NCBI GenBank assembly: GCA_963812945.1
Contig: CAWEXD010000008.1
Span: 3,100,001-3,164,000, forward strand
Direction of reading: 5' to 3'
Source: DASRDR01 sp963812945 [NCBI: uncultured Candidatus Rokubacteria bacterium]
GTDB lineage: Bacteria > Methylomirabilota > Methylomirabilia > Rokubacteriales
Length of the DNA stretch: 64,000 bases
Part shown: in pieces, positions 23,261-48,889 of the stretch
Layout: the number at the start of each line of letters is the position of its first letter
Position numbering within the stretch: the first letter of the stretch is position 1
The notes under the pieces: model-generated
Told to the model about the DNA's origin: nothing
Seen by the model: the letters and a program-made list of their open reading frames with translations, nothing else
Database searches by the model: none
Made by a program: the position numbers and the translations under genes

Positions 23261-23276
23261 TGGCACGCCTGTTGCT
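23261..23276 (+). promoter_or_regulatory. Sigma-54 (-24/-12) promoter
   Basis: TGGCACGCCTGTTGCT matches the sigma-54 consensus TGGCACG-N4-TTGCT at every conserved base, with GG (23262-23263) and GC (23274-23275) separated by exactly 10 bp. Transcription would begin near 23287, only about 7 bases before the annotated ATG at 23294. Confidence 0.7.
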
Positions 23277-26970: not shown

Positions 26971-27257
26971 CTCTCTCCGGCCGCTGACCGCCCGCTGAAG
27001 ACCCGCCGTCCCCAGTCCGGGAACCGGCCACGCCCACCACGAAGCAGAGCAACCCGCGTGCCAGACGACGTCGGGGTGAGCGGAGCGGGGGAAACAGGGC
27101 GTCCCGCGTCAAGTGTCGCGCGGGGTTGAGGCCAGGTTTCGAGGCCTCAGGCTTCCGGCCTCACCCGACCCGACCAGAATCGAAAGGTGGTCTAGATGGT
27201 GACCAGGAGTGTCAGAACCCGTCAATTGGTCGTTGGCAGTCGCCGGCAGTCGCTGCT
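26971..27257. other. Intergenic region, about 290 bp
   Basis: I see no gene here. It contains GC-rich imperfect hairpins, for example GAGGCCTCAGGCTTCCGGCCTC near 27141-27163, but none has a T-run, so I make no terminator call in this part. Confidence 0.4.
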
Positions 27258-33623: not shown

Positions 33624-33998
33624 TCACCCGCCGGGACGCCAGCTCGGGTCCTCGAGCGGCACTCCGAGCCACGACACGATCGCGGCGAGGGCGCGGTAGG
33701 CGTCGAGCCGGGCGGCGTCCGTGCCGAGGTCCTCCGCTTTCCGCACGAGCTCCGTCATCTGGCGCACCACCATCGGCCCCGCGTAGAGGAGCGCCTCGCT
33801 GCCCGAGGCGGCGTAGCGCGCCAGGACGAATGCCGCGAGCGCACCGACGGGGATGCCCTTGCGACGGCCGAGCTCCTCGAGGGTCGGGAGCGGATCGATC
33901 GCCGAGTACTCGGCGACCAGCTGACGGAACCCCGCGTCCGGATCGTCGGGCGGCCACTGCCCGCGGTAGGGCTCGAGCGTGATCGTTCGCGTTCCCAT
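33624..33998 (-). CDS. Conserved hypothetical protein (DUF6027-like)
   Basis: 124 aa, ATG 33998 with a strong GGAGGAAGGA eight bases upstream. It begins TITLEPYRGQWPPDDPDAGF and is mostly alpha-helical. The core (PTLEELGRRKGIPVGALAAFVLARYAASGSEALL) looks like a compact helix-turn-helix-like bundle. I recall a family of unknown function with this N-terminal pattern but cannot confirm the name. It has no signal peptide. It stands alone between the aldolase promoter and the giant regulator. Confidence 0.6.
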   Translation of the reverse strand: MGTRTITLEPYRGQWPPDDPDAGFRQLVAEYSAIDPLPTLEELGRRKGIPVGALAAFVLARYAASGSEALLYAGPMVVRQMTELVRKAEDLGTDAARLDAYRALAAIVSWLGVPLEDPSWRPGG

Positions 33999-34082: not shown

Positions 34083-36206
34083 CTACGGGGTGACCGAGGG
34101 CTCGACCTCGACCTGAGCCAGCCAGAGCGTCAGGCCCATCTCGCCGTACATCGTCCGCGCGAGGGCCAGGTGCTCCTCCGCCTGCGCAGGATCGCCGCGC
34201 CGCCTGAGCCAGTGTCCGAGACCCAGATGGCAGTGGGCGACGAGCGGGCGCATCCCGAGCTCGGTGGCGAGGGCGAGCGCCTGCCGGTAGTGCTCCTCGG
34301 GAGCGGGGGAGTCCGCGCTCTCGGTCTTGGCCGCGATCTCGCCGAGGAGCCGCCGGACCCAGGCCTCGTACCCGCGCTGGCCGCGCTGGCGCGCGAGGTC
34401 GAGAGTCCGCCGGGCAAGCTGGTCGGCCTTCTCGATCCGCCCGGCCTTGAGGTAGGCCTCGGCCAGCGCCAGCGAGGGAATCGGCTCGAGCCAGAGACGC
34501 TGCTCCCGCGCGAGCGCCCCCTCGAGGAGTGGAATCGCCTCCCCCGGTCGCCCCGCGAGCGTGTAGGCGGCGCCCAGGTGTCCGACGATCACGTCGAACA
34601 GGTTCGCCAGCTTCCAGTGCCGGCAGAGCGCCAGGGACCGCTCGAGCGTGCTCACGGCCCTCGACAGGTCGCCCTGACGGAGCCGGAGGATCCCCTCGCC
34701 GAGCGACAGGAAGGTCTGCGAGTAGGGATGGTCGAGCGTCCGGGCGATGCGCAGACCCTCCTCGAGGACGGGCTGCGCCTCCGCGAACTGGCCGAGCTCG
34801 GCGAGGCTCCAGAGGAGGAGCGTGCGGGGAAAGATGGCCGGCGGAGCGTGGAGCAGGTGCGGGGCGTAGCGCTCGAGCTGCGGGTTTCCCCGGAGCAGGT
34901 CGATGTCCTTCCGCGCGAACTTCGTCGCCCGGGTGTAGTTGCCGAGGGTGACGTAGGCCATCGCGAGGTACAGGCTCGCGACGACCTGCACCGTGGTGTC
35001 GCCGAGGGCGGCGCCGATGTCGAGCGCACGGCGGCCGGACTCGATCCCCTGGGCCCGGTCGTCCCGCGTGGAGAACATTGGCGTCAGGAGCGCAAGCGCC
35101 ATCGCCCGCCGCCGCTGATCGCCCACCGCCGCCGCGAGCTGCTCCGCCCGCTTGACGCACTCGAACACCCGCCGGAACTCGGCGAGCGGCCACAGGGCGT
35201 TCCGAAGGTCGAACTGGATGTCGATCGCCTGTTCCAGGAGCTCGCGGCGCTCCGGAAGGTGGCCGAGCGCCCTCACCGCCTGATCCAGCCAGGCAACCGC
35301 CTCCCGGTGAGCCGACCGGCCGAGCGCCTGGAACGCCGCGCGCCTCGTGTAGTCGACGGCCTTCTCCCAGGCCTCGGCCTCGATCGCGTGGTGCGCCAGC
35401 CGCTCGACCAGCTCCTCCCGGCCTTCGGGCTGCCAGCCCTCGAGCACGTCGACGATCCGGGCGTGGAGGGCCTGCCGCTGGGCGGGCAGGAGGCTCGCGT
35501 ACGCCACCTCGTGCGTCAGCGCGTGCTTGAAGGTGTACTCGAGCTCGGAGGCCGCGCGCGTCTCGTAGAGGAACTCGGCGCCCTGGAGCCGCGCCAGGCG
35601 CTCGCGTAGAGCCTCGTCGGGCGGCGCCAGGATCGCCTGGAGCAGGAGGAAGGGCAGCCTCCGCCCGATGACCGCCGCCGCCTGGAGCACGCGCTTGTCG
35701 TCGGCGGTCAGGCGGTCGATCCGGGCCATGATGACCTCTTCGACGGTATCCGGAACCGCCGGCACCGGCGATCCCGGCGCGGAGCTCCCGCCTTCGGCGA
35801 CGGCCCGGGCCAGCTCCTCCGCGAAGAACGGGTTGCCCTCGGCCTTGGCCACGATCATCTCGACGGTGGGCGCGGCGACTTCGGCCGGGCCGAACACGTC
35901 CCGGACCAGACTCAGGCTCTCCTGCGGCGAGAGCGGCTGAAGGGCGACCTGCGTCGCGTAGGACTTGTCCATCCAGGGCGGCCGGTACCCCGGCCGGTGA
36001 GTCGTGACGAGCAGGATCCGCGCGCCCGCCACGACCTCGACGAGCGTCGCGAGGTACTCCTCGGAGGTCCGGTCGACCCAGTGCAAGTCCTCCACGACGA
36101 GCACGAGCGGGGCCCGTTCCGCCAGCCGGCGGCTCAGCTCGCGCAGCGCCTCGAACGTGCGCCCCTTGACGACTTCCGGACTGATCCGCTCGAATGCCTC
36201 CCCCCC
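34083..36206 (-). CDS. C-terminal part of split regulator: STAND/AAA ATPase core and TPR repeats
   Basis: This frame continues the upstream regulator piece after a single missing base in the C7 run at 36200-36206. It carries Walker B LVLVVEDLHWVDRTSEEYLA, then LLVTTHRPGYRPPW and KAEGNPFFAEELARAVAE, the sensor/winged-helix part of AAA_16/STAND ATPases. About 450 residues of tetratricopeptide-like helices follow (repeated W-A-Y pairs such as AEAWEKAVDYTRRAAFQALG). In this family the ATPase and TPR superhelix sense a ligand and switch the attached domains. The frame is open upstream to 36365 but is not meaningful before the homopolymer. It ends near residue 1383 of the reconstructed protein. Confidence 0.75.
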   Translation of the reverse strand, partial: GGEAFERISPEVVKGRTFEALRELSRRLAERAPLVLVVEDLHWVDRTSEEYLATLVEVVAGARILLVTTHRPGYRPPWMDKSYATQVALQPLSPQESLSLVRDVFGPAEVAAPTVEMIVAKAEGNPFFAEELARAVAEGGSSAPGSPVPAVPDTVEEVIMARIDRLTADDKRVLQAAAVIGRRLPFLLLQAILAPPDEALRERLARLQGAEFLYETRAASELEYTFKHALTHEVAYASLLPAQRQALHARIVDVLEGWQPEGREELVERLAHHAIEAEAWEKAVDYTRRAAFQALGRSAHREAVAWLDQAVRALGHLPERRELLEQAIDIQFDLRNALWPLAEFRRVFECVKRAEQLAAAVGDQRRRAMALALLTPMFSTRDDRAQGIESGRRALDIGAALGDTTVQVVASLYLAMAYVTLGNYTRATKFARKDIDLLRGNPQLERYAPHLLHAPPAIFPRTLLLWSLAELGQFAEAQPVLEEGLRIARTLDHPYSQTFLSLGEGILRLRQGDLSRAVSTLERSLALCRHWKLANLFDVIVGHLGAAYTLAGRPGEAIPLLEGALAREQRLWLEPIPSLALAEAYLKAGRIEKADQLARRTLDLARQRGQRGYEAWVRRLLGEIAAKTESADSPAPEEHYRQALALATELGMRPLVAHCHLGLGHWLRRRGDPAQAEEHLALARTMYGEMGLTLWLAQVEVEPSVTP

Positions 36207-38233
36207 TCCCCGGGCTCGAGGAGGTGGAGCAGGTAGGGGGTCGCCTCCCGACCGTCCATCCCGGTGCGGTCGAGCGTCGCCCTGAGCTTGTCGCGCACGC
36301 CGTCCGGCCCGTCGGTCTCGACGATGGCGCACGCCGCCCGCAGGAGCTCGACCAGCGGCAAGCACGGGATCGGGGTCGTATAGGGCAGGCAGTGCCCTTC
36401 CAGGCAGAGGATGGGCTGCGCGGACAGGCCCTGCCGGAGCTCGCCGATCAGCCGTGACTTGCCGATCCCCGCCTCGCCGGCGATCGCCACCACCTGACCC
36501 TGACCGCGCACCGCCGCGGTCAGCCGGCTCCGGAGGAGGTCCAGCTCGTGATCCCGCCCGACGAAACGGGTGCCGCGGCCGGCGGTGATCTTCCCTCGCT
36601 CGAGACCGCCGAGACGGAACGCCGAGCGGCGGCCGGGCCCGGCGGCGAGCGGCGTGAGGTCGAATCCTCGGGCGAGGAACGGAGCCGCCGCGGCGCTCAC
36701 GACGATGGTGCCCGGCTCCGTGCCCGCGACCAGCGCGCCCATCGCGCCGAGAGCGGTCCGCTTGTCCTCCGTATCGACCAGCGAGGCGTCCTGGAGGCGC
36801 CCGAGGAGGAAGGAGCCCACGTCGATGCCGATCCGGATGTCCGACCTCGAGTCACCCGAGGTGCGCTCGGCGGCGCGCAGCATGGCGACCGCGGTCATGG
36901 CGGCGCGGCGCACCGCATCCTCGACCGGGTCGAGTCCGAACAGCACGACGAACCCGCTGGCACCGAGCTCCTCCACGCGGCCGCCGAACGACCGGGCCTT
37001 GTCGAGCAGGGTCTCGGTCGAGCGCCAGGTGTCCAGCGGACCGGCGTCCTTGTCCGACCTCAGGACCGCCTGAAGCAGGGCCAGCCGGCGCCGCTCCCAT
37101 CGGATCGCCCCCGGGGCGACGGGACTCCCGGCGGGCGCGCTCGGAGCCGGGACCGCCGGCACGGCCGGAGCCTCGGCGGCGGGAGCCTCGGCCGGGATCT
37201 TTCGTCGAGCGCGGCGAGGCGGCGCGGGCGCGCCGGGGCGGAGCCCGTGCTTCTCGATGCGGTACCGGATCGTGTTGCGCGAGATGCCGAGCCGTGCCGC
37301 CGCGCGCGTGACGTTCCACGCGGTCGCCTCCAGGGCCTCCTGGAGGTGCGCGCGCTCGGCGCCGTCCACCACCGACGCCAGCGACGCGGGCGCCGGCGAC
37401 GCCGGCGCCTCGGACAGGACGGCCGACGCGGCCGGAGCCCCGCCCCGGTCGGCCAGGTTCAACATGTCGCCGGTCACCACGGACGCCTCGGCGAGGAGAA
37501 CCACGCGTTCCATGGCGTTCATGAGCTCCCGGACGTTGCCCGGCCACCGGTAGGCCAAGAGCGCGGCTCTCGCGTCGGGGGCGAGCGTCTTCGCGGGGAG
37601 CCCGTAGTCGGCGCACGCGCGGGCGAGGAAGTGCTCCGCGAGGAGCAGGATGTCGCCCTGGCGCTCGCGGAGCGGTGGGAGCGCGAGCGTCAGGACGGCG
37701 AGCCGGTGATAGAGGTCCTCCCGGAATCGTCCCGCGCGGGTCGCCGCCTGGAGGTCGAGGTTCGAGGCGGCGATGATCCAGACGTCCACGGGCTCGCTCT
37801 CGATCGCCCCCAGACGGCGGACGGTGCGCTCCTCGAGCACGGTGAGGAGCTTGGCCTGGAGACCCTCGGGCAGGAGCCCGATCTCGTCCAGGAAGAGCGT
37901 GCCCCGGTTGGCGGCCTGAAAGAGGCCCCGCTTGGCCTGACGGGCGTCGGTGAACGCGCCGCGCTCGAAGCCGAACATCTCCGCCTCGAGCAGGGTCTCG
38001 GGTATGGCCGCGCAGTTGACGTCCACGAAGGGCCCGCCGGACCGAGGGCCTGCCCGATGGAGCGCCAGGGCCACGAGCCCCTTGCCGCTTCCGGTCTCGC
38101 CCTGGATCAACACGGGCGGCAGGCGCCGGACCTCGGATGCCCGGGCCACGAGCCGGGCGATTCGCTCCCGGATGGCCAGGATTCCGGGGCTCTCGCCGAC
38201 CAGCTCCGCCAGGAGGGGCATGGCACCCGCCAT
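36134..38233 (-). CDS. N-terminal part of split regulator: sigma-54 AAA+, Fis HTH, cyclase-like domain, second ATPase
   Basis: Start MAGAMPLLAELVGESP (38233) chosen because conserved sequence begins there; the open frame extends to 38287. Domains: sigma-54 activator AAA+ at about 10-255 (Walker A GETGSGKG 45-52, sigma-54 contact loop GAFTDA 92-97 where GAFTGA is canonical, Walker B LFLDEIG 113-119); Fis-type helix-turn-helix at about 297-332 (WNVTRAAARLGISRNTIRYRI); a degenerate nucleotidyl-cyclase-like domain at about 385-540, lacking the metal-binding Asp motif; then Walker A GEAGIGKS at 586-593 of a second ATPase. The frame breaks after GEGG at the G7 tract (36206-36200). One added G joins it to 34083-36206, giving about 1383 aa. 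It lies divergent from a sigma-54 promoter. Confidence 0.8.
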   Translation of the reverse strand: MAGAMPLLAELVGESPGILAIRERIARLVARASEVRRLPPVLIQGETGSGKGLVALALHRAGPRSGGPFVDVNCAAIPETLLEAEMFGFERGAFTDARQAKRGLFQAANRGTLFLDEIGLLPEGLQAKLLTVLEERTVRRLGAIESEPVDVWIIAASNLDLQAATRAGRFREDLYHRLAVLTLALPPLRERQGDILLLAEHFLARACADYGLPAKTLAPDARAALLAYRWPGNVRELMNAMERVVLLAEASVVTGDMLNLADRGGAPAASAVLSEAPASPAPASLASVVDGAERAHLQEALEATAWNVTRAAARLGISRNTIRYRIEKHGLRPGAPAPPRRARRKIPAEAPAAEAPAVPAVPAPSAPAGSPVAPGAIRWERRRLALLQAVLRSDKDAGPLDTWRSTETLLDKARSFGGRVEELGASGFVVLFGLDPVEDAVRRAAMTAVAMLRAAERTSGDSRSDIRIGIDVGSFLLGRLQDASLVDTEDKRTALGAMGALVAGTEPGTIVVSAAAAPFLARGFDLTPLAAGPGRRSAFRLGGLERGKITAGRGTRFVGRDHELDLLRSRLTAAVRGQGQVVAIAGEAGIGKSRLIGELRQGLSAQPILCLEGHCLPYTTPIPCLPLVELLRAACAIVETDGPDGVRDKLRATLDRTGMDGREATPYLLHLLEPGEGGRHSSGSVRKSSRGARSRRCAS

Positions 38234-38304
38234 GGTGCCCGCCCGGCGAGTGGTGGTCAAGCTTCCACCACCACCACCGTGCACCACATTGCGACCATGT
38301 CAGT

Positions 38305-38333: not shown

Positions 38334-38348
38334 TGGCACCTTCGTTGC
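38334..38348 (+). promoter_or_regulatory. Sigma-54 (-24/-12) promoter
   Basis: TGGCAC (38334-38339) and TTGC (38345-38348) place GG and GC exactly 10 bp apart, as sigma-54 requires. Predicted transcription starts near 38360, giving a 40-base leader with GGAGGAA before ATG 38401. Confidence 0.75.
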
Positions 38349-38400
38349 CATGTGTCCCAGGCAAGTGCCCGATACGAACCCCCTGACGGAGGAACAAGCT

Positions 38401-38928
38401 ATGAGCAACGGACGGTGCCTACGGACGTGGATCGGGGTGACCCTCACGGTCCTGGGGACTGGACTGGCAGGCAACGTGGCGGCCCTGGCCGAGCCCGAAG
38501 GGCCCTGGACGCCTTCGATCCAGCAGGTGGACGTCGCCCTCGCGCGCAAGGAGTACAGCGCCGCCTTGCGGGCCGCCAACGACGCCTACACCCTCGCGCT
38601 CAACACCACCCGCTGGGACGGGATGGTCTCCGCCGGGGATCTGTACCGCCGCATCGGCGAGGCCACGGGTCTCCGGCGATCGTTCGACACGAAGGCGCGC
38701 GAGGCCTATCAGAAGGCCTTCTTCCGCGCCCGCCAGCAGGCCTCCGTGGACGGCGTCCTCCGGGCCGTGGAGGGCTACGCCGCCCTGGGCGACGCGCAGA
38801 TGGTCGGCGTCGGGCTCCGCGTGGCGGATCGGCTCGCCATCCGGGATCCCGAGGCCCAGGCCGACATCCGGACGTTCCGGGCCCGCCTCGGCGATCCGGC
38901 CCTGGCCGCGGGAGAGATCCGGCAATGA
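38401..38928 (+). CDS. Secreted helical protein under sigma-54 control, unknown
   Basis: 175 aa with GGAGGAA upstream of ATG 38401. The signal peptide runs MSNGRCLRTWIGVTLTVLG to about ALA (residue 30). The mature part is all-helical and TPR-like: YSAALRAANDAYTLAL, WDGMVSAGDLYRRIGEATG, EAYQKAFFRARQQASVDGVLRAVEGYAALGD. The second half is clearly related to the gene that follows, so the pair arose by duplication with one copy exported. It is transcribed from a sigma-54 promoter facing away from the sigma-54 regulator. No named family is recognised and the function is unknown. Confidence 0.7.
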   Translation: MSNGRCLRTWIGVTLTVLGTGLAGNVAALAEPEGPWTPSIQQVDVALARKEYSAALRAANDAYTLALNTTRWDGMVSAGDLYRRIGEATGLRRSFDTKAREAYQKAFFRARQQASVDGVLRAVEGYAALGDAQMVGVGLRVADRLAIRDPEAQADIRTFRARLGDPALAAGEIRQ

Positions 38929-39410
38929 GGGAGACGCGCATGGCAGAGCGAGCGACCGACGCGCACGGAGTCTCCGTCGCGGCCCGGTGGGCCAGGCCCT
39001 TCGGCGCCGTGGACCGCGAACGCGCCGGCCACCTCGCGGTGGTGGAGAGCCTCGGCTGGGACGACCTGATCGCGATCGGGGACGCCCGCCTCCGGGTCGG
39101 CAGCGCGGTCGGGGCCCGTCCGTCCGGCGAGCTCGCGGCCCGGCGTGTCTACTTCGCCGCCCTTTACCGCGCGTGCCGCGCGGAGTCCCTCGAGGGCATC
39201 CTGCGCGCGGCCGAGGCCTTCGCCGACCTCGGCGACGGCGACGTCGTCGAGGAATGCCTGGGCCTCGCCGAGCTCAAGGTGGACGGCGAGGAGGCCCGGC
39301 GGCGCGTGTCCGCGCTCGTCCAGCGCCTCGGGGCCGCGCAGACAGCCCGGAGCGGCGCCACGACCGGCCCCGTCAGCCTGGACCAGCCCGATGGCGCGGT
39401 GACCGACTGA
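38925..39410 (+). CDS. Cytoplasmic paralogue of the preceding secreted helical protein, unknown
   Basis: 161 aa from ATG 38925, which overlaps the upstream TGA (ATGA); an in-frame ATG at 38940 is an alternative. No signal peptide. The segment LGWDDLIAIGDARLRVGSAVG ... ARRVYFAALYRACRAESLEGILRAAEAFADLGD aligns with the secreted neighbour (WDGMVSAGDLYRRIGEATG ... AREAYQKAFFRARQQASVDGVLRAVEGYAALGD). Translational coupling and shared fold suggest equal amounts of an exported and an internal form. Function unknown. Confidence 0.7.
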   Translation: MRETRMAERATDAHGVSVAARWARPFGAVDRERAGHLAVVESLGWDDLIAIGDARLRVGSAVGARPSGELAARRVYFAALYRACRAESLEGILRAAEAFADLGDGDVVEECLGLAELKVDGEEARRRVSALVQRLGAAQTARSGATTGPVSLDQPDGAVTD

Positions 39411-41452: not shown

Positions 41453-43255
41453 CTATGCCTCGCGATACCAGTGTGCCAGGTTCCAGAAGCTCGAGTCCCA
41501 GCCGCTGATCTCCGTGCCCTTCAGCTTGGTGGACACGCCCGACACCCAGTTCCGCCAGACGAGCGGGATGACGACCATGTTCTGCACCACGAGATCGTTC
41601 ATCCGGATGAACAGCGCCGCGCGCTTCACCGTGTCCATCTCCGTCTCGGCGCTCTTGTACAGCCGGTCGAACTCCTCGTTGCGCCAGCGCGTCGTGTTGC
41701 GCCCCGAGAACTTGTTCGCCTTGCTGGCCACCTCCCACGAGGGGAAGACGCGCAGGGACGGCTGGGGATCGACGTCGAACTGCCAGGCGTACATCTGGAG
41801 GTCGGCGCTGAAGTGGCCGATGTTGTCCGGGTTCGCTTCATCAGAGCCGAAGAAGACGGACGCGACCACGGTCTTCAGCTCCATCTCCATTCCGGCCTTG
41901 GCGGCCCCCTGCTTGATGATGGCCTGCTCCTTCTGCCGGAGCGGGTTGATCGACGTCACGAGCAGGAACTTCAGCCGCTTGCCGTCCTTGGCGCGGACTC
42001 CGTCCGCGCCGCGCTTCCAGCCGGCTGCCTCGAGGACCTGGTTCGCCTTGTCGACGTTGAACTCCCAGCGCGTGTTCTTGGACTGGAACCGGCTCGGAGC
42101 GTTCACGTAGTTGGCGGTCGCCTGCCCGGCCCGCCCGTAGAGCTGCTCCTGCATGGAGCCGCGATCGATCACGAGGGACAGCGCCTGCCGGACAGCCGGA
42201 TCGGAGAGCAACGGGTGCTTCGTCTTGACGCTGGATCGCTCGCCGTCGACCTCGGTCCAGGGGTCGGTCTGGTTCACGTTGACGTGCTCGACGTTCCCCG
42301 ACACCGCGAAGTCGACCCGGCCCCGGCCCCCCTGCTCCATCCGCCTGAGGATCTCGTCCTCCACCTGGAGGTTCCAGGCGAAGTCGTACTCGCCGGTCTG
42401 GAGAACGGCCCGAGCGGCCGAGGCCGCGTCACCGCCGCCCTTCACCTCGACCCGGTCGAAGAACGGCCAGTTGGGCATGTGGTAGTTCGGGTTGAGCTCG
42501 GCCCGGACGACGTCGTCGGGCTTGAAGTCCACGTACCGATAGGGGCCGGTGCCGACCGGCTTCAGGTTGGCCGGCGCCTCCCGGGACTTCGCGCCCTTGA
42601 ACGGCTCGAAGACGTGGCGGGGGATGACGAGCCCCGTTGGACCGCAGAAGGAGATCGCCCAGAACGGCATCGCGTTCTTGAAGCCGATCTTGACGGTGTG
42701 GCTGTCGACCTTGTCGATCCGGACGATGTCCTTGTAGTTGCCGGCCGTGGTCGCGGCCGTCGCCGGGTCGGCCGCGAACTCCCAGGTGAACACGACGTCA
42801 TCGGCGGTGAAGGGCTTGCCGTCGTGCCACTGGACGTTGCGCTTGAGCTTCCAGGTGACCGACATGCCGTCCTTCGCGACCCCGCCGTTCTCGAGTGTCG
42901 GCACCTCTGCCGCGAGGATGGGCACCAGGTTGCCGTCGGGGTCGAAGGCCGCGAGCGGCTCGTTGAAGATCCGGGAGCCGTCGTTGTCCTTCACGCCCAC
43001 CGCGAGGTGGCAGTTCAGGATACTCACCGCCTGCCACCAGAGCGTCTTGAGCTCGCCGCCACCGCCGCGCCGGGTCGGAGTGAACGCGGGCTTCGTCTGG
43101 GCGGCGGCCCGGCGGGGCACCCCGGCCGCGGTAAGCATCTGCGCTGCCATCGGCGCCGTCAGGCCTGCTCCGACCATCAGCCGCGTGAACCGGCGGCGCG
43201 ACATCGCGCCGTCCTTGACTCGGGCCATCCAGTGGCGAAGCTCCCGCTCTTCCAT
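41453..43255 (-). CDS. Tat-exported peptide-binding protein, tandem copy 1
   Basis: 600 aa, ATG with GGAGGAG upstream. N-terminal EERELRHWMARVKDGAMSRRRFTRLMV contains a twin-arginine motif (SRRRFTR), followed by a hydrophobic stretch and AAA-QTKP cleavage, so export is through Tat in the folded state. Family-5 core: LVPILAAEVPTLENGG, VQWHDGKPFTADDVVFTWEF and PVGTGPYRYVDFKPDDVVRAELNPNYH. It is closest to the permease genes in the operon. All four copies end in a conserved W-[HY]-REA. Ligand unknown. The 81-base gap to dppB contains a possible fragment of the repeat found in the TCA operon. Confidence 0.9.
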   Translation of the reverse strand: MEERELRHWMARVKDGAMSRRRFTRLMVGAGLTAPMAAQMLTAAGVPRRAAAQTKPAFTPTRRGGGGELKTLWWQAVSILNCHLAVGVKDNDGSRIFNEPLAAFDPDGNLVPILAAEVPTLENGGVAKDGMSVTWKLKRNVQWHDGKPFTADDVVFTWEFAADPATAATTAGNYKDIVRIDKVDSHTVKIGFKNAMPFWAISFCGPTGLVIPRHVFEPFKGAKSREAPANLKPVGTGPYRYVDFKPDDVVRAELNPNYHMPNWPFFDRVEVKGGGDAASAARAVLQTGEYDFAWNLQVEDEILRRMEQGGRGRVDFAVSGNVEHVNVNQTDPWTEVDGERSSVKTKHPLLSDPAVRQALSLVIDRGSMQEQLYGRAGQATANYVNAPSRFQSKNTRWEFNVDKANQVLEAAGWKRGADGVRAKDGKRLKFLLVTSINPLRQKEQAIIKQGAAKAGMEMELKTVVASVFFGSDEANPDNIGHFSADLQMYAWQFDVDPQPSLRVFPSWEVASKANKFSGRNTTRWRNEEFDRLYKSAETEMDTVKRAALFIRMNDLVVQNMVVIPLVWRNWVSGVSTKLKGTEISGWDSSFWNLAHWYREA

Positions 43256-43322
43256 CGCTCCTCCTACGGAATCAGCCGCTTGGGGGATACCCCTGGTCCG
43301 TGATCCAAGGACCTGACTCCGG

Positions 43323-45125
43323 CTACGCTTCCCGGTACCAGTGGGTCAGGTTCCAGAAGCTCGAGTCCCAGCCGCAGATGTCGGTGTTCCGGAGCTTGTT
43401 CGAGATGGCGGAGATGTTGGACCGCCAGGTGATCGGCACGATCACGTTGTTCTGCGTCAGGAGGTCGTTCATCCGGATGAAGAGCGCGGCCCGCTTGACC
43501 GGATCCATCTCGGACTCGGCGGCCTTCCACGCGCGGTCGTACTCCTCGTTGCGCCAGCGCGTGTTGTTCCGGCCCGCCCAGTTGTTGGCCTTGGTGGCGA
43601 TCTCCCAGGAGACGAACGGGTCCATGAACCGCTGCGGCTCGGGGCCGCTCGTCATGTTGAAAGCGTACATCTGGATGTCGGCCCAGAACTTGGAGGTGGT
43701 GTCGGGATTCCCGGGATCGCTCCCGAAGTACACCGAGGCCACGACCGACTTGATCTCCATCTCGATCCCCGCCTTCGCAGCGGCCTGCTTCACGATGGCC
43801 TGGGTCTTCTGACGGACGGGGTTGATCGAGGTCTGGTACACCATCTTGAGCTTCTTGCCGTCCTTGGCGCGGATGCCGTCGGCGCCGCGCTTCCAGCCGG
43901 CCTGGTCCAGCACCCCGTTGGCCTTGTCGACGCTGAACTCCCAGCGGGTGTTGGGCGACCGGAAGCGGCTCGGCGCGTTGAGGTAGTTCGCCGTCGCCTG
44001 GCCCTGGCGCCCGTAGAGCTGCTCCTGGATCCCGGCCCGGTCGATCAGCAGCGCGAGCGCTTGCCGCACGGCGGGATCCGTGAGGAAGGGGTGCGTCGAC
44101 TTCGCGCTGCCGCGCTCACCCTCCACCTCGGTCCACGGATCCGAGAAGTTGCAGAGCAGGTGCTCGATGCCCGCGGCGGGCGCGATGTCCGTGCGCCCCT
44201 TGCCACCCTGCTCCATCCGGCGGAGCACGTCGTCCTCCACCTGGATGTTCCAGGCGAAGTCGTACTCCCCGGTCTGGATGACGGCGCGGGCCGCCGACAC
44301 GGCGTCACCGCCCCCCTTGAGCTCCAGCCGGTCGAAGAACGGCCAGTTCGCCTCGTGGTAGCTCGGGTTCAGCTCGGCCCGGATCGCGTCTCCCGGCTTG
44401 AAGTCGACGATCCGATAGGGCCCGGTACCGACCGGCTTGAGGTTCGCCGGCGCCTCACGCGACTTCGCCCCCTTGAACGGCTCGAAGACGTGCTTCGGGA
44501 TGACGCAGAGCGTCCCCCCGAAGGTCTGGAACCAGGCGGGGTTGGGCGCCTTGTAGACGATCTTGAACGTGTGGGCGTCGAGCTTGTCGATGCGCGCGAC
44601 GTCCTTGTAGGTCCCCGCGGTGATCGCCGTCGTCGCAGGGTCGGACGCATATTCCCACGTGAACACGAAATCGTCCGCGGTGAGGGGCTTCCCGTCGTGC
44701 CACTGGACGTTCCGCTTGATCTTCCACGTCACGGACAGCCCGTCCCGCGCGATGCCGCCGTTCTGGAGGGTCGGGACCTCGGCGGCGAGAACCGGGATGT
44801 AGTTGCCCTCCGGGTCGAACGAGATCAGCGGCTCGTAGAAGATGCGCGACCCGTCGCCGTCCTTGACCCCGATGGACAGGTGCGGGTTGAGGATCGTGGG
44901 GCCCTGCCACCAGAGGACCTTCAGCTCGCCTCCGCCCCCGCGCCGGGCAGGGGTGAAAGCCTTGGCCTGGGCGGCGGCCTCGCGGGGCACCCCGGCCGCG
45001 GCAAGCACCTGCGCGGCCATCGGGGCGGTCAGCCCGAGACCGGCCAGCATTCGGGTGAACTCCCGGCGGCTGAGAGTGCCGGCCCTCGCCCGGGCGATCC
45101 ACTCCCTCAACTCGCGCTCATCCAT
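43323..45125 (-). CDS. Tat-exported peptide-binding protein, tandem copy 2
   Basis: 600 aa from ATG 45125 with GGAGGATTCC upstream (the frame is open 36 bases further). The Tat leader is DERELREWIARARAGTLSRREFTRMLAGLGL. The core has the same blocks as copy 1 (VQWHDGKPLTADDFVFTWEYASDP, GTGPYRIVDFKPGDAIRAELNPSYH). The ligand-cleft regions differ from the others (for example NPAWFQTFGGTLCVIP), suggesting a changed ligand. It shares C-terminal RNTDICGWDSSFWNLTHWYREA with copy 1, so copies 1 and 2 look like the more closely related pair at that end. Confidence 0.9.
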   Translation of the reverse strand: MDERELREWIARARAGTLSRREFTRMLAGLGLTAPMAAQVLAAAGVPREAAAQAKAFTPARRGGGGELKVLWWQGPTILNPHLSIGVKDGDGSRIFYEPLISFDPEGNYIPVLAAEVPTLQNGGIARDGLSVTWKIKRNVQWHDGKPLTADDFVFTWEYASDPATTAITAGTYKDVARIDKLDAHTFKIVYKAPNPAWFQTFGGTLCVIPKHVFEPFKGAKSREAPANLKPVGTGPYRIVDFKPGDAIRAELNPSYHEANWPFFDRLELKGGGDAVSAARAVIQTGEYDFAWNIQVEDDVLRRMEQGGKGRTDIAPAAGIEHLLCNFSDPWTEVEGERGSAKSTHPFLTDPAVRQALALLIDRAGIQEQLYGRQGQATANYLNAPSRFRSPNTRWEFSVDKANGVLDQAGWKRGADGIRAKDGKKLKMVYQTSINPVRQKTQAIVKQAAAKAGIEMEIKSVVASVYFGSDPGNPDTTSKFWADIQMYAFNMTSGPEPQRFMDPFVSWEIATKANNWAGRNNTRWRNEEYDRAWKAAESEMDPVKRAALFIRMNDLLTQNNVIVPITWRSNISAISNKLRNTDICGWDSSFWNLTHWYREA

Positions 45126-45230
45126 GGGAATCCTCCGTACGCTCTCGGGGGGCGGTAGCATCCTGACAGGAGATCACGCGCCACGGCAAGCCAGGCGCGT
45201 CGGACCCGGGCTCCGGAGGCCCGGCAGGGC

Positions 45231-45257
45231 GGTGCAGGACGCGTCCGGTCCTGCACC
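45231..45257 (-). other. Strong intergenic stem-loop between binding-protein genes
   Basis: GGTGCAGGAC and GTCCTGCACC form a perfect 10-bp stem with a 7-base loop. It lies in the 159-base gap between copies 3 and 2, the longest gap of the operon. There is no T-run, so it is more likely an mRNA-stabilising or processing element than an intrinsic terminator. Confidence 0.45.
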
Positions 45258-45284
45258 ACCCTGCGTGAGCCCGACGAGCGACGG

Positions 45285-47081
45285 CTACGCCTCGCGATGC
45301 CAGTTGGCGTGGTTCCAGAAATCGGACTCCCAGGGGCTCTGCTCCGTATTGCGCATCTTGTTGGAGACCGCCACCACGCGCGCCCGCCAGAGCACCGGGA
45401 TGACGACCACGTTCTGGATCAGGAGGTCGTTCATCTTGATGAACAGGGCCGCCCGCTTCACCGGATCCATCTCGCTGTCGGCGGCCTTCCACGCGCGGTC
45501 GTACTCCTCGTTGCTCCACCGCGTGGGGTTGCGACCCGACCACTTGTTCGCCTTGGAGGAGATCTCCTCGGTGAGGAACTGGTTCATGAACCGCTGGGGG
45601 TCGGGATGGACCATCGTGGTCGTGTACATCTGGATGTCGCTCTTGAAGTGCGGGAAGGTGTCCCAGTTCGCCGGGTCGGACCCGAAGAAGACCGACGCGA
45701 CGACCGACTTGATCTCGACCTCGATCCCCGCCTTGGCCGCCGCTTGCTTCACGATCGCCTGGGTCTTCTGCCGCGGGGCGTTGATGGACGTCTGGTACAC
45801 GACCTTGAGGCGCTTGCCGTCCTTCGTCCGGATGCCGTCGGCGCCCTTCTTCCAGCCGGCCGCCTCGAGGACCTGGCTCGCCTTCTCGACGTTGAACTCC
45901 CACTTCATGTTGTTGGAGCGGACCTTCGACGGGGCGTTCAGGAAGTTCGCGCTGGTCCGGCCCTGGCGGCCGTAGATCTGCTCCTGGACGGCGGACCGGT
46001 CCACCACGAGGTTCAGGGCCTGGCGCACGGCCGGGTCGGTCAGGAAGGGGTGCTTCGACTTCGGGCTGGAGAATTCCCCGTCGACCTCGGTCCAGGGGTC
46101 CGACTGGTTGACGCCGATGAACTCGATGTTACCGCCGTAGACGATCTCGACCCGGCCCTTCCCGCCCTGCTCCATCCGGAGGAGGATGTCGTCCTCGACC
46201 TGCATGTTCCAGGCGTAGTCGTACTCGCCGGTCTGGAGCACGGCCCGGGCCGCGGACGCGGCGTCCCCGCCGCCCTTCATCTCGAGCGTGTCGAAGAACG
46301 GCCGGTTCGGGACATGGTAGTTCGGGTTGAGCTCGGCCCGGACGGTGTCCCCGGGCTTGAAGTCGACGATCCGGTAGGGCCCCGTGCCGACGGGCTTCAG
46401 GTTGGCCGGCGCCTCCCGGGCCTTGGCGCCCTTGAACGGCTCCATGACGTGCTTCGCCATGACCTGGCCGTTGGGGCCGCAGAACGGCTCGAAGGGGAAC
46501 GGCGCCGGGCGCGTGAAGGTGATCTTGGCCGTGTGGGGGTCCAGCTTGTCGATCTTGGCGATGTCCTTGTACGCCCCCGAGGTCACCGCGGTGGAGGCGG
46601 GGTCGGCCACCCACTCCCAGGTGGCGACCAGGTCGTCGGCCGTGAAGGGCTTCCCGTCGTGCCAGGTCACGCCCTTCTTGAGCTTCCAGGTCACCGACGT
46701 CCCGTCCTTGGAGACCCCGCCGTTCTGGAGGGTGGGCACCTCCGCGGCCAGGACCGGCAGGAGGTTCCCGTCCGGGTCGAAGGAGCAGAGCGGCTCGTGG
46801 AAGATTCGGGAGGCGTCGACGTCCTTCGTCCCCGGGGACAGGTGGGGATTCAGGAGCACGGGCGCCTGCCACCACAGCGTCTTGACGGGGCCGCCCCCGC
46901 CGCGCTTCGTCGGATTGAACACCGCCTTGGGCTGGGCCTGGGCCACTCCGGCGTGGCTCAGCATCTGGGCCGCCATCGGCGCCGTCAGCCCGAGCCCGAC
47001 CATCATCCGGGTGAACTGGCGCCGGCTGACGGCGCCGGTCTTGACCTGCCCGATCAGTGCGCGGATCTCGCGCTCGTCCAT
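45285..47081 (-). CDS. Tat-exported peptide-binding protein, tandem copy 3
   Basis: 598 aa from ATG 47081 with GAGGAGGCG upstream; the much longer open frame upstream is chance and crosses copy 4. The Tat leader is DEREIRALIGQVKTGAVSRRQFTRMMVGLGL. Core motifs are as in the other copies (TWHDGKPFTADDLVATWEW, GTGPYRIVDFKPGDTVRAELNPNYHVPNRPFFDTLEMKGGGD). It resembles copy 4 most (shared PNRPFFDT, PANWDT, MYTTTM regions). It starts only 11 bases after copy 4. Confidence 0.9.
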   Translation of the reverse strand: MDEREIRALIGQVKTGAVSRRQFTRMMVGLGLTAPMAAQMLSHAGVAQAQPKAVFNPTKRGGGGPVKTLWWQAPVLLNPHLSPGTKDVDASRIFHEPLCSFDPDGNLLPVLAAEVPTLQNGGVSKDGTSVTWKLKKGVTWHDGKPFTADDLVATWEWVADPASTAVTSGAYKDIAKIDKLDPHTAKITFTRPAPFPFEPFCGPNGQVMAKHVMEPFKGAKAREAPANLKPVGTGPYRIVDFKPGDTVRAELNPNYHVPNRPFFDTLEMKGGGDAASAARAVLQTGEYDYAWNMQVEDDILLRMEQGGKGRVEIVYGGNIEFIGVNQSDPWTEVDGEFSSPKSKHPFLTDPAVRQALNLVVDRSAVQEQIYGRQGRTSANFLNAPSKVRSNNMKWEFNVEKASQVLEAAGWKKGADGIRTKDGKRLKVVYQTSINAPRQKTQAIVKQAAAKAGIEVEIKSVVASVFFGSDPANWDTFPHFKSDIQMYTTTMVHPDPQRFMNQFLTEEISSKANKWSGRNPTRWSNEEYDRAWKAADSEMDPVKRAALFIKMNDLLIQNVVVIPVLWRARVVAVSNKMRNTEQSPWESDFWNHANWHREA

Positions 47082-47092
47082 GGTCGCCTCCT

Positions 47093-48889
47093 CTAGGCTT
47101 CGCGGTGCCAGAAGGCCAGGTTCGCGAGGTCCGAGTCCCAGGCGCTGATGTCGGTGTCCTTCAGCTTGTGCGAGATGGCGGAGACCGTCGCGCGCCAGGT
47201 CACGGGAATCACAACAACGTTCTGGATCACGAGATCGTTCATCCGGATGAACATGGCCGCGCGCTTGACGGGATCCATCTCCGCGTCGGCCGACTTCCAG
47301 AGCTTGTCGTACTCCTCGTTGCGCCACCGCGTGGGATTGCGCCCCAGCCACTTGTTCTCCTTGGAGGCCACTTCCCACGAGGTGAACTGGTCCATCAGCC
47401 GCTGTGGATCGGGGTGCGTCATCGTCGTCGTGTACATCTGGAGGTCGGTCGCGAAGTGCGGATACGTGTCCCAGTTGGCCGGGTCCGAAGCGAAGAACAC
47501 CGACGCCACGATCGACTTGATCTCGAGCTCGATGCCCGCCTTGGTCGCCGCTTGCTTGACGATCGCCTGGGTCTTCTGGCGAACGGCGTTGATCGAGGTC
47601 TGGTAGACCATCTTGAGCCGCTTGCCGTCCTTCGCCCGGATCCCGTCCGGCCCCTTCTTCCAGCCGGCGGCCTCGAGGATCTGACCCGCCTTGTCGGGGT
47701 TCAGCTCCCACTTGTTGTTCTTGGAGCTGAACTTGGACGGCGCGTTCAGGAAGTTCGCCGTCGCCTGGCCCTGGCGGCCGTAGAGCTGCTCCTGGACCGA
47801 GCCCCGGTCGACCAGGAGCGCGAGCGCCTGGCGAACCGCCGGATCGGTCAGGAACGGGTGCTTGGACTTGATGCTCGAGCGCTCCCCGTCGACCTCGGTC
47901 CAGGGGTCGGTGTTGTTGAGCTGGATGTGCTCGATGTTCCCGGCCAGCGCGATGTTGATCCGGCCCTTGCCCCCCTGCTCCATCCGGATCAGGATGTCGT
48001 CCTCGACCTGGATGTTCCAGCCGTAGTCGTACTCACCGGTCTGGATGACCGCGCGCGCCGCCGAGGCTGCGTCGCCGCCGCCCTTCAGCTCGACCGTGTC
48101 GAAGAAGGGGCGGTTCGGGACGTGGTAGTTCGGGTTGAGCTCGGCCCGGACGGTGTCACCCGGCTTGAAGTCAACGTACCGATACGCCCCGGTGCCGACA
48201 GGCTTGAGGTTCGCCGGCGCCTCCCGGGACTTCGCGCCCTTGAAGGCCTCGAAGAGGTGCTTGGGAATGATCTGGCCCGTCGGCCCGCAAAGCGCCGTGT
48301 ACGGGAAGGGCTGCGGCCGGTTGAACGTGACCTTGACCGTGTTCGCGTCGACCTTCTCGACCTTCGTGACGTTCGGGAACGCGCCCGAGGTCACGGCGGC
48401 GGTGGCCGGGTCCGTCGCATACTCCCAGTTGAAGACCACGTCGTCGGCCGTGAAGGGCTTCCCGTCGTGCCACTGGACGTTCTTCTTCAGCTTCCACGTG
48501 ACCGACGTGCCGTCCTTGGAGATGCCGCCGTTCGCGACCGTCGGGATCTCGGCGGCCAGGTTCGGCGTGAGGTTGCCGTCGGGGTCGAACGACGCGAGCG
48601 GCTCGTAGAAGATCCGGGAGCCGTCCTGGTCCTTGGTGCCGTTCGCGAAGTGGGGGTTCAGGAGGGTCGGGGCCTGCCACCACAAGACCTTCAGCGCCCC
48701 ACCACCGCCCCGCTTCGTCGGCGCGAACGCGGCCTTCGTCTGCGCGTGGGCCACGCCGGCGGACGCCAGCATCTGGGCGGCGAAGGGAGCCGTGAGGCCC
48801 AGGCCGACCATCGTCTGCGTGAAGTCGCGGCGGGTGATCGTGCCATCCTTCACCCGCTCGATCCAGTGCTTGAGCTCGCGCTCCTCCAT
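47093..48889 (-). CDS. Tat-exported peptide-binding protein, tandem copy 4 (operon head)
   Basis: 598 aa from ATG 48889 with GGGAGGACTG upstream. The leader EERELKHWIERVKDGTITRRDFTQTMVGLGL keeps the twin arginines (TRRDFTQ) but departs most from the SRRxF consensus. The core is intact (VQWHDGKPFTADDVVFNWEYATDP, GTGAYRYVDFKPGDTVRAELNPNYH). It is first in the operon and has a good promoter about 100 bases upstream. Four consecutive paralogues feeding one permease pair suggests selection for several peptide ligands. Confidence 0.9.
   Translation of the reverse strand: MEERELKHWIERVKDGTITRRDFTQTMVGLGLTAPFAAQMLASAGVAHAQTKAAFAPTKRGGGGALKVLWWQAPTLLNPHFANGTKDQDGSRIFYEPLASFDPDGNLTPNLAAEIPTVANGGISKDGTSVTWKLKKNVQWHDGKPFTADDVVFNWEYATDPATAAVTSGAFPNVTKVEKVDANTVKVTFNRPQPFPYTALCGPTGQIIPKHLFEAFKGAKSREAPANLKPVGTGAYRYVDFKPGDTVRAELNPNYHVPNRPFFDTVELKGGGDAASAARAVIQTGEYDYGWNIQVEDDILIRMEQGGKGRINIALAGNIEHIQLNNTDPWTEVDGERSSIKSKHPFLTDPAVRQALALLVDRGSVQEQLYGRQGQATANFLNAPSKFSSKNNKWELNPDKAGQILEAAGWKKGPDGIRAKDGKRLKMVYQTSINAVRQKTQAIVKQAATKAGIELEIKSIVASVFFASDPANWDTYPHFATDLQMYTTTMTHPDPQRLMDQFTSWEVASKENKWLGRNPTRWRNEEYDKLWKSADAEMDPVKRAAMFIRMNDLVIQNVVVIPVTWRATVSAISHKLKDTDISAWDSDLANLAFWHREA

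What the first reader, a model, noticed from the sequence alone, without database searches (positions are those of the whole stretch)
34083..38233. Sigma-54 activator fused to a STAND-type sensor: HTH in the middle of a ~1380-aa protein
The order seen is sigma-54 AAA+ (residues about 10-255), Fis-type HTH (297-332), degenerate cyclase-like domain (385-540), second ATPase with Walker A GEAGIGKS, then TPR repeats. Known activators carry the sensor in front and the HTH at the very end; known cyclase-ATPase-TPR proteins have no sigma-54 motor. Joining both would give an activator whose output domain is gated by a large C-terminal sensor. The sigma-54 loop is GAFTDA rather than GAFTGA. Domain calls follow family motifs; the mechanism is inference.
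Basis: partly seen in the sequence, partly recalled or inferred. Interest (0 to 1): 0.72.

Follow-up and report, generated by a model that had tools for sequence, protein, structure and literature searches.

The report
Sigma-54 activator with rear-mounted STAND sensor
Rokubacteria, uncultured soil and groundwater bacteria, carry a family of gene switches in which the motor that starts sigma-54 transcription sits at the front of one long protein and a large exchangeable sensor sits at the back, most of them beside a promoter that they probably control; the copy in this window is split by a reading-frame break.

Summary
The domain order is real, on the minus strand, but in this window it lies in two overlapping frames that meet at a 7-G run (36200-36206). 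In relatives it is one ORF: one search lists 58 full-length matches in 34 of 95 genomes of the phylum. So the joined protein is a genuine Rokubacteria family: sigma-54 AAA+ motor, Fis HTH, catalytically dead cyclase fold, STAND ATPase, TPR. The loop is GAFTDA in 57 of 58 members, a variant known to work. New here: a sigma-54 promoter points from the regulator to the divergent gene (at most one mismatch in 14 of 57 members, 0 of 57 on the other strand; shuffles mean 0.19, maximum 2), with a 19-bp dyad about 70 bp upstream in about half of the promoter-bearing members. Motor parts 85% identical can carry TPR parts 25% identical: the sensor end is exchanged. I read it as a local sigma-54 switch gated, like AfsR, by a C-terminal STAND-TPR sensor; activation is well supported by anatomy, gating is inferred. 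C-terminal sensors are known in LevR activators and a reversed-order relative exists, so this is a new variant, not a new kind.

The parts
34083..38221 (-). whole regulator locus, two frames; probable start ATG at 38221 (alternative 38233)
   Evidence: relatives by eye also begin a few residues before the LxELxGxS motif
36134..38287 (-). ORF A: sigma-54 AAA+, Fis HTH, cyclase-like domain, first part of STAND ATPase, then out-of-frame tail
37685..38173 (-). sigma-54 interaction AAA+ domain (PF00158, 6e-59)
37943..37960 (-). sigma-54 contact loop GAFTDA
   Evidence: 57 of 58 members
37445..37669 (-). AAA+ lid (PF25601)
37250..37357 (-). Fis-type helix-turn-helix (PF02954, 6.4e-14)
36599..37102 (-). 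degenerate class III cyclase-like domain (limits by alignment)
   Evidence: fold of the L024 relative: VIA Z about 20 to cyclases; catalytic set kept in 0 of 58 members
36200..36565 (-). STAND ATPase, first part, Walker A at 36455-36478
   Evidence: AAA_16; fold of the L024 relative matches Apaf-1, CED-4
36200..36206 (-). 7-G run where the two frames meet (-1 offset)
   Evidence: 0 of 57 relatives has a run of 7 or more there, 1 has 6
34083..36203 (-). in-frame useful part of ORF B: rest of STAND ATPase (EDLHWVD within 36072-36098) and TPR sensor
38253..38271 (+). enhancer-like dyad GTGGTCAA-gct-TCCACCAC, centre about 72 bp before the -24 element
38334..38349 (+). sigma-54 -24/-12 promoter TGGCACCTTCGTTGCC, pointing away from the regulator
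38401..38928 (+). divergent gene 1: small helical TPR-like protein, N-terminus hydrophobic by eye; predicted target
38925..39410 (+). divergent gene 2: paralogue of gene 1

Best explanation
A locally acting sigma-54 switch. The N-terminal AAA+ motor with the GAFTDA loop contacts sigma-54 RNA polymerase; the Fis-type HTH behind it binds a dyad about 70 bp upstream of a -24/-12 promoter, and the ring remodels the closed complex there, turning on the divergent operon (in the window, two small TPR-like proteins). The C-terminal half (dead cyclase fold, STAND ATPase, TPR superhelix) is the signal receiver: without signal it holds the chain inactive, and signal binding plus ADP/ATP exchange opens the STAND part and lets the motors assemble, as the NOD-TPR part of AfsR restrains its N-terminal SARP output. 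Shown: domain order, one-ORF conservation, kept motor residues, promoter and dyad placement, rpoN in 18 of 20 genomes, exchange of TPR parts. Inferred: activation of that promoter, inhibition by the C-terminal half, nature of the signal. In the window copy the frame break (sequencing or assembly error, or a recent mutation; cannot be told here) would cut the motor from most of the sensor.
For: Architecture in one ORF: 25 of 26 complete loci; 58 of the 76 rows run from residue 1-5 to >=1257 of 1360 without a stop, in 34 of 95 genomes (recounted). One clade: the smallest clade with all 64 fused rows holds 66, the other two being genes cut short, SH-like support 100, FastTree, rooted by me on distant rows. 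Motor: GAFTDA 57 of 58; Walker A, Walker B and second Walker A conserved (Walker A and loop were part of the search motif). GAFTDA works: NorR G266D makes open complexes and escapes repression by its sensor (PMC2941729, passages); D. vulgaris DVU2106 has GAFTDA with assigned targets (PMC4641369, passages). Promoter: 14 of 57 at <=1 mismatch against 0 of 57 on the regulator strand; 31 of 57 at <=3 mismatches within 120-150 nt, shuffles mean 1.10, maximum 5; in 41 representatives under 80% identity 12 against 0. Dyad: 22 of 40 promoter-bearing members at 64-76 bp from -24 (shuffles mean 0.155, maximum 1); hold-out 0.64 against 0.10 by chance, spacer DNA otherwise 31% identical. One genome-wide match of dyad half plus promoter in each of 11 of 13 genomes, each just upstream of the regulator. 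rpoN in 18 of 20 genomes. STAND fold. TPR exchange. AfsR: N-terminal output inhibited by NOD and TPR, relieved by ATP (PMC10936776, passages).
Against: No expression, binding or ATPase data. The window copy is broken and its own genome is not held. 17 of 57 members have no promoter by the rule, among them L024, the protein modelled here, and L020. Four of 57 have a site with <=2 mismatches on the regulator strand. 17 of 40 promoter-bearing members lack the dyad at 11 of 16 letters. The dyad consensus came from the same sequences; the hold-out lessens but does not remove that, because the seed consensus was shared. The 13 genomes were chosen because they hold such sites and the pattern was built from them, so it cannot exclude weaker or different targets. 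GAFTDA in NorR escapes N-terminal repression, which could mean these proteins are not held off by a sensor at all. Two of 20 genomes gave no rpoN match, possibly incompleteness.
Confidence: 0.66

Rival explanations
1. Positive rather than negative control: the C-terminal STAND-TPR half does not inhibit the motor but supplies oligomerisation (an apoptosome-like wheel) that assembles the sigma-54 ring on the enhancer.
For: STAND fold closest to oligomerising Apaf-1, CED-4 and plant resistosomes; no N-terminal domain that could repress the motor; near-invariant GAFTDA, which in NorR bypasses repression.
Against: AfsR, the closest functional parallel, is inhibited by its C-terminal part. Fold matches show no function.
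Confidence: 0.2
2. The regulator acts as a repressor or mere binder at the divergent promoter, the motor being a relic.
For: One local site per genome would also fit a local repressor.
Against: Walker A, Walker B and the sigma-54 loop are conserved in diverged members; the promoter beside it is of sigma-54 type, which needs an activator.
Confidence: 0.05
3. In this window the break is biological: two separate proteins (motor-HTH-cyclase and ATPase-TPR) or a programmed -1 frameshift at G GGG GGG.
For: The 7-G heptamer fits a -1 slip; both halves are otherwise open; a simple coding score lets the second half start at a GTG at 36104.
Against: None of 57 relatives has a run of 7 G there; 25 of 26 complete loci are uninterrupted; a start at 36104 would lose part of the ATPase.
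Confidence: 0.1
4. The joined architecture is an artefact of assembling neighbouring genes.
For: Unfused neighbours exist in Rokubacteria: a REC-sigma54-HTH gene directly before a zinc-ribbon-cyclase-ATPase-TPR gene in L077.
Against: 34 genomes give one ORF; the fused proteins form one clade apart from the unfused ones.
Confidence: 0.01

Closest known systems
AfsR (SARP-NOD-TPR, Streptomyces; PMC10936776, passages)
   Same: N-terminal transcription-activating output, then STAND NTPase, then C-terminal TPR sensor
   Different: output here is a sigma-54 AAA+ motor with Fis HTH, not a SARP; an extra dead cyclase fold lies between
LevR-like bEBPs (PMC4987338, passages)
   Same: sigma-54 activator whose regulatory part is at the C-terminus
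   Different: theirs is PRD domains phosphorylated by the PTS; no PRD found here
kinase - nSTAND-like - TPR - GAF - sigma54 - HTH protein of a genome recorded as Myxococcales (L126; the nSTAND match is under the Pfam cut-off)
   Same: same kinds of parts in one chain
   Different: reversed order: sensor parts in front, motor and HTH at the end; no cyclase fold found
TOMM kinase/cyclase fusion family TIGR03903 and zinc-ribbon-cyclase-AAA_16-TPR proteins
   Same: cyclase-fold, STAND ATPase and TPR half; TPR up to 69% identical
   Different: kinase or zinc ribbon in place of the sigma-54 motor; the unfused cyclases compared keep both metal-binding Asp motifs

Membership tests
bacterial enhancer-binding protein (NtrC family) | sigma-54 interaction AAA+ domain above the Pfam cut-off | tested here: met
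   PF00158 198.9 bits against 20.2
bacterial enhancer-binding protein (NtrC family) | sigma-54 contact loop GAFTGA or an active variant | tested here: met
   GAFTDA 57 of 58 (the search motif allowed only GA[FY]TxA); variant active in NorR (PMC2941729, passages)
bacterial enhancer-binding protein (NtrC family) | Fis-type HTH | tested here: met
   PF02954 6.4e-14
bacterial enhancer-binding protein (NtrC family) | usual (not obligatory) order sensor-motor-HTH with HTH at the end | tested here: not met
   HTH_8 at 283-319 of 1360 residues in P0003
bacterial enhancer-binding protein (NtrC family) | acts at a sigma-54 promoter through an upstream enhancer | tested here: inconclusive
   sites present and placed as expected; action not testable here
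STAND NTPases | NTPase core of the Apaf-1/CED-4/MalT fold followed by a repeat sensor | tested here: met
   AAA_16 in 49 of 49; model of L024: Foldseek 3.7e-12 to Apaf-1, VIA Z 21.0 to CED-4; TPR
STAND NTPases | signal-driven ADP/ATP exchange and oligomerisation | not testable with these tools
   needs purified protein
LevR-like bEBP | C-terminal PRD/PTS domains | tested here: not met
   no PRD or PTS family among the Pfam matches of either window ORF or of P0003
class III nucleotide cyclase (catalytic) | two metal Asp, transition-state Asn and Arg | tested here: not met
   by alignment 0 of 58 keep all four; 0 of 58 keep both Asp
class III nucleotide cyclase (fold) | cyclase homology domain fold | tested here: met
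   model of L024: VIA Z 20.7, rmsd 3.0, 172 residues to 2w01
TIGR03903 TOMM_kin_cyc | score over the curated cut-off 705.75 | tested here: not met
   P0003 305.6 bits; window ORFs 109 and 230.8 bits

The most novel reading that the evidence does not exclude
A new class of sigma-54 activator in which two different ATPases are stacked in one chain: a STAND wheel with an exchangeable TPR receptor nucleates or releases the sigma-54 ring in front of it, so that one conserved motor is re-purposed for different signals by swapping the rear sensor, each copy wired to its own divergent promoter.
Probability: 0.4. Interest if true: 0.76.

Novelty: new variant of a known kind. Interest (0 to 1): 0.62.

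Why it matters
It links two large signalling families, sigma-54 enhancer-binding proteins and STAND ATPases, in an order I did not find described (searches; open-licence PubMed Central only). Many members come with their own predicted promoter and enhancer, which makes the question 'how does a C-terminal STAND sensor gate a sigma-54 ring' testable with one plasmid. The family gives uncultured Rokubacteria a predicted sigma-54 target and shows natural exchange of TPR sensors behind a constant motor.

Tried and rejected
Viral contigs: 40 stretches matched a pattern, none a relative. Plasmids: 2534 records matched, 0 covered 80% of P0001 at one place; the 15 rows shown cover 41-45%, mostly the sigma-54 and HTH part. 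Outside the phylum: 297 genomes (one search proved to be the same phylum with nearly the same draw), 140 and 200 (nothing at 1e-95, and the tool warns that an empty answer shows nothing). In some searches every match listed at 1e-95 starts at residue 318 or later, that is without the motor; only the top 2-4 candidates per genome were scored, so absence elsewhere is not proven.

Programmed frameshift: rejected as a family trait. Active cyclase: rejected. G017:C100, which looked like a second frame break, holds unknown residues at the junction (L085); in L075 motor-HTH and cyclase-ATPase-TPR lie in different frames. The first count of the Asn and Arg columns was one column off and was redone. 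My member search required GKG and GA[FY]TxA and an ORF of 500 codons, so it missed at least seven members (L101, L105, L107, L114, L115, L118, L123), checked: of nine loci read over the loop there, 8 have GAFTDA and one, L116, truncated by its contig end, has GAFTGA; the one GAFTGA is L110. Those seven are not in the promoter counts. The tree tool counts 3 label changes because L115 and L116 were labelled 'other', and it warns of long branches among the outgroup rows. The divergent protein has no Pfam match and only weak, largely TPR-like fold matches, none at E<=0.001. PMC7159879 and PMC1262709 (passages) gave no sigma-54 occurrence for the terms tried.

Full report
WHAT IS IN THE WINDOW. The feature lies on the minus strand. 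ORF A (36134-38287, 717 aa) carries the sigma-54 AAA+ domain (PF00158, residues 39-201), its lid (207-281), a Fis HTH (311-346) and the start of an AAA_16 ATPase (from 574); ORF B (34083-36365, 760 aa) carries the rest of AAA_16 (28.3 bits, under the cut-off by itself) and TPR repeats. They are in different frames, which meet, offset by -1, in a run of seven G at 36200-36206.

THE JOIN IS RIGHT FOR THE FAMILY. One scan of GTDB genomes with ORF A gave 38 loci; 27 are Candidatus Rokuibacteriota, 26 of them matched over most of the query (L015 from residue 87) and one cut by its contig end; the other 11, from other phyla, match only the sigma-54 and HTH part. Of the 26, 25 are one uninterrupted frame of 1356-1495 codons from stop to stop; L015 is shorter. 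With the intact L024 protein (P0003, 1360 aa) as query, 39 of 95 genomes of the phylum match at 1e-190, in 76 rows; 58 rows run from residue 1-5 to 1257 or beyond without a stop, in 34 genomes, up to 4 per genome; 64 rows start at residue 1-5, and 11 start after residue 240, that is without the motor or cut. A FastTree of the sigma-54+HTH part puts all 64 fused rows into one clade of 66 (SH-like support 100, rooted by me on distant rows); the other two rows are genes cut short. At the homologous site none of 57 relatives has a 7-G run (one has 6), so the break is private to this copy. Whether it is an error or a mutation cannot be told here.

THE MOTOR IS KEPT, WITH A FAMILY-WIDE LOOP. GAFTDA is found in 57 of 58 distinct members (by a motif that left only the third letter F/Y and the fifth letter free); of nine further loci read over the loop 8 have GAFTDA and 1 GAFTGA. 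Walker A (part of the search motif), Walker B and the FREDLYHRL stretch are conserved. The change is not a loss: in NorR the same change (G266D) still makes open complexes and frees the motor from its GAF sensor (PMC2941729, passages), and GAFTDA is listed among variants expected to work in D. vulgaris, with targets assigned to DVU2106 (PMC4641369, passages). rpoN is found in 18 of 20 of these genomes.

THE REAR HALF. An AlphaFold2 model of L024 residues 340-962 from a 49-row alignment has pLDDT 85 and pTM 0.80. Residues 20-195 of the model match class III cyclases (VIA Z 20.7, rmsd 3.0, 172 residues, 2w01) and residues 195-597 match STAND ATPases (CED-4 Z 21.0; Foldseek 3.7e-12 to Apaf-1). 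The cyclase is dead by sequence: by alignment 0 of 58 keep the four catalytic residues, 0 of 58 even both metal aspartates, whereas the 7 unfused zinc-ribbon relatives compared keep both; Pfam's cyclase model matches 2 of 49 members, weakly. The sensor end is exchanged: L020 and L024 are 85% identical in motor and HTH, 57% in the ATPase and 25% in TPR; L024's TPR instead groups with TPR parts of seven unfused zinc-ribbon cyclases (51-69% identical). Over 1431 pairs of 54 full members the motor identity correlates with the ATPase at 0.78 and with the TPR at 0.47; pairs without a TPR hit of more than 250 residues were set to 22%. The window's TPR belongs to the largest class (46% to L020).

THE TARGET. 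In the window two small paralogous genes (38401-38928 and 38925-39410, plus strand) lie divergent to the regulator; the same family lies there in 15 of the 26 loci compared (25 relatives plus the window, some cut by contig ends) and, by the promoter-anchored count, in 19 of the 38 members in which a downstream ORF was called, out of 40 with a promoter. Between regulator and gene 1 stands TGGCACCTTCGTTGCC (38334-38349), a -24/-12 element with one mismatch to the recalled consensus TGGCAC-N5-TTGCW, pointing away from the regulator. Exact matches to TGGCACNNNNNTTGC occur at two other places in the window too, and five matches with up to one mismatch are not rare by chance (10 of 100 shuffles), so the window alone proves nothing. 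The family does: of 57 members with at least 300 nt upstream, 14 have a site with at most one mismatch toward the divergent gene and 0 toward the regulator; at two mismatches 28 against 4, at three 43 against 10, and 31 of these 43 lie in the same 30-nt zone. Against that, 200 dinucleotide shuffles give mean 0.19 (maximum 2) at one mismatch, 12.07 (maximum 19) at three mismatches anywhere, and 1.10 (maximum 5) at three mismatches in the zone. In 41 representatives under 80% identity the figures are 12 against 0 at one mismatch, 29 against 10 at three, and 19 in the zone. Upstream of it a dyad GTGKTCAA-N3-TTGACCAC was found by Gibbs sampling in 40 promoter-bearing members: 23 of 40 have at least 11 of 16 letters, 22 of these centred 64-76 bp before -24 (shuffles: mean 0.155, maximum 1 in place). 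The consensus comes from the same data; in a half-and-half hold-out with that seed the best site of unseen members falls in the zone in 0.64 of cases against 0.10 expected, while the spacer is only 31% identical among 26 representatives. The window's dyad is GTGGTCAAgctTCCACCAC at 38253-38271. In whole genomes the pattern TTGACCA-N54-68-TGGYAY-N5-TTGC occurs exactly once in each of 11 of 13 genomes (0 in two; one hit of the backwards control), each time just upstream of the fused regulator (places). These 13 of the 20 genomes were chosen because they hold such sites, so the result says that further copies of this exact arrangement are rare, not that other targets are absent. 17 of 57 members have no promoter by my rule. 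Paralogues without the small TPR-like pair face other genes.

HOW IT PROBABLY WORKS. HTH on the dyad, AAA+ ring on sigma-54, divergent operon on; the STAND-TPR half decides when. The nearest tested parallel for a front output held by a rear STAND-TPR part is AfsR, whose NOD and TPR inhibit the SARP and where ATP relieves it (PMC10936776, passages). A rear sensor in a sigma-54 activator is known in LevR-like proteins (PMC4987338, passages; also 48 of 490 clostridial activators with a C-terminal PRD, PMC6615313, passages). Steps shown: order, conservation, sites, single genomic match. Steps inferred: activation, gating, signal. The signal is unknown.

NOVELTY. No paper that I found describes this order (searches; open-licence PubMed Central only, listings and the passages named). 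Parts and both principles are known, and a protein with like parts in reversed order exists in a genome recorded as Myxococcales (L126; its nSTAND match is under the Pfam cut-off), so I file it as a new variant of a known kind.

Noticed in passing
L077 1487-2926 and 2998-6300; also L078, L080, L086: In Rokubacteria a sigma-54 activator gene (in L077 REC-sigma54-HTH; GAFTDA in L077, L078 and L080) lies directly before (L077) or near an unfused zinc-ribbon-cyclase-ATPase-TPR gene: a two-gene version of the same pairing.
   Followed up: partly
window 41453-48889: Four tandem paralogous genes of about 600 aa that by eye look like ABC peptide-binding proteins, beside two permease-like genes; not tested against a family library.
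   Followed up: no
window 33624-33998: DUF6027 protein (PF19492, 4.2e-38) directly downstream of the broken regulator.
   Followed up: no
L097: Two fused regulators near each other on one contig (G082:C2 96292-100227 and 103261-107166); by my rule one has a promoter toward the divergent side and the other none.
   Followed up: no
L002, L003, L004, L014, L022 and others, +1 or +2 gene: A convergent gene of one family follows the regulator in 15 of 26 loci compared, not in the window; by eye it looks ATP-grasp-like, not tested.
   Followed up: no
window 23261-23275 + and 27049-27063 -: Two further exact TGGCACNNNNNTTGC matches; not shown to be more than chance.
   Followed up: no
L126 4826-9328: Protein of a genome recorded as Myxococcales with kinase, weak nSTAND, TPR, GAF, sigma54 and HTH: like parts in reversed order.
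   Followed up: partly
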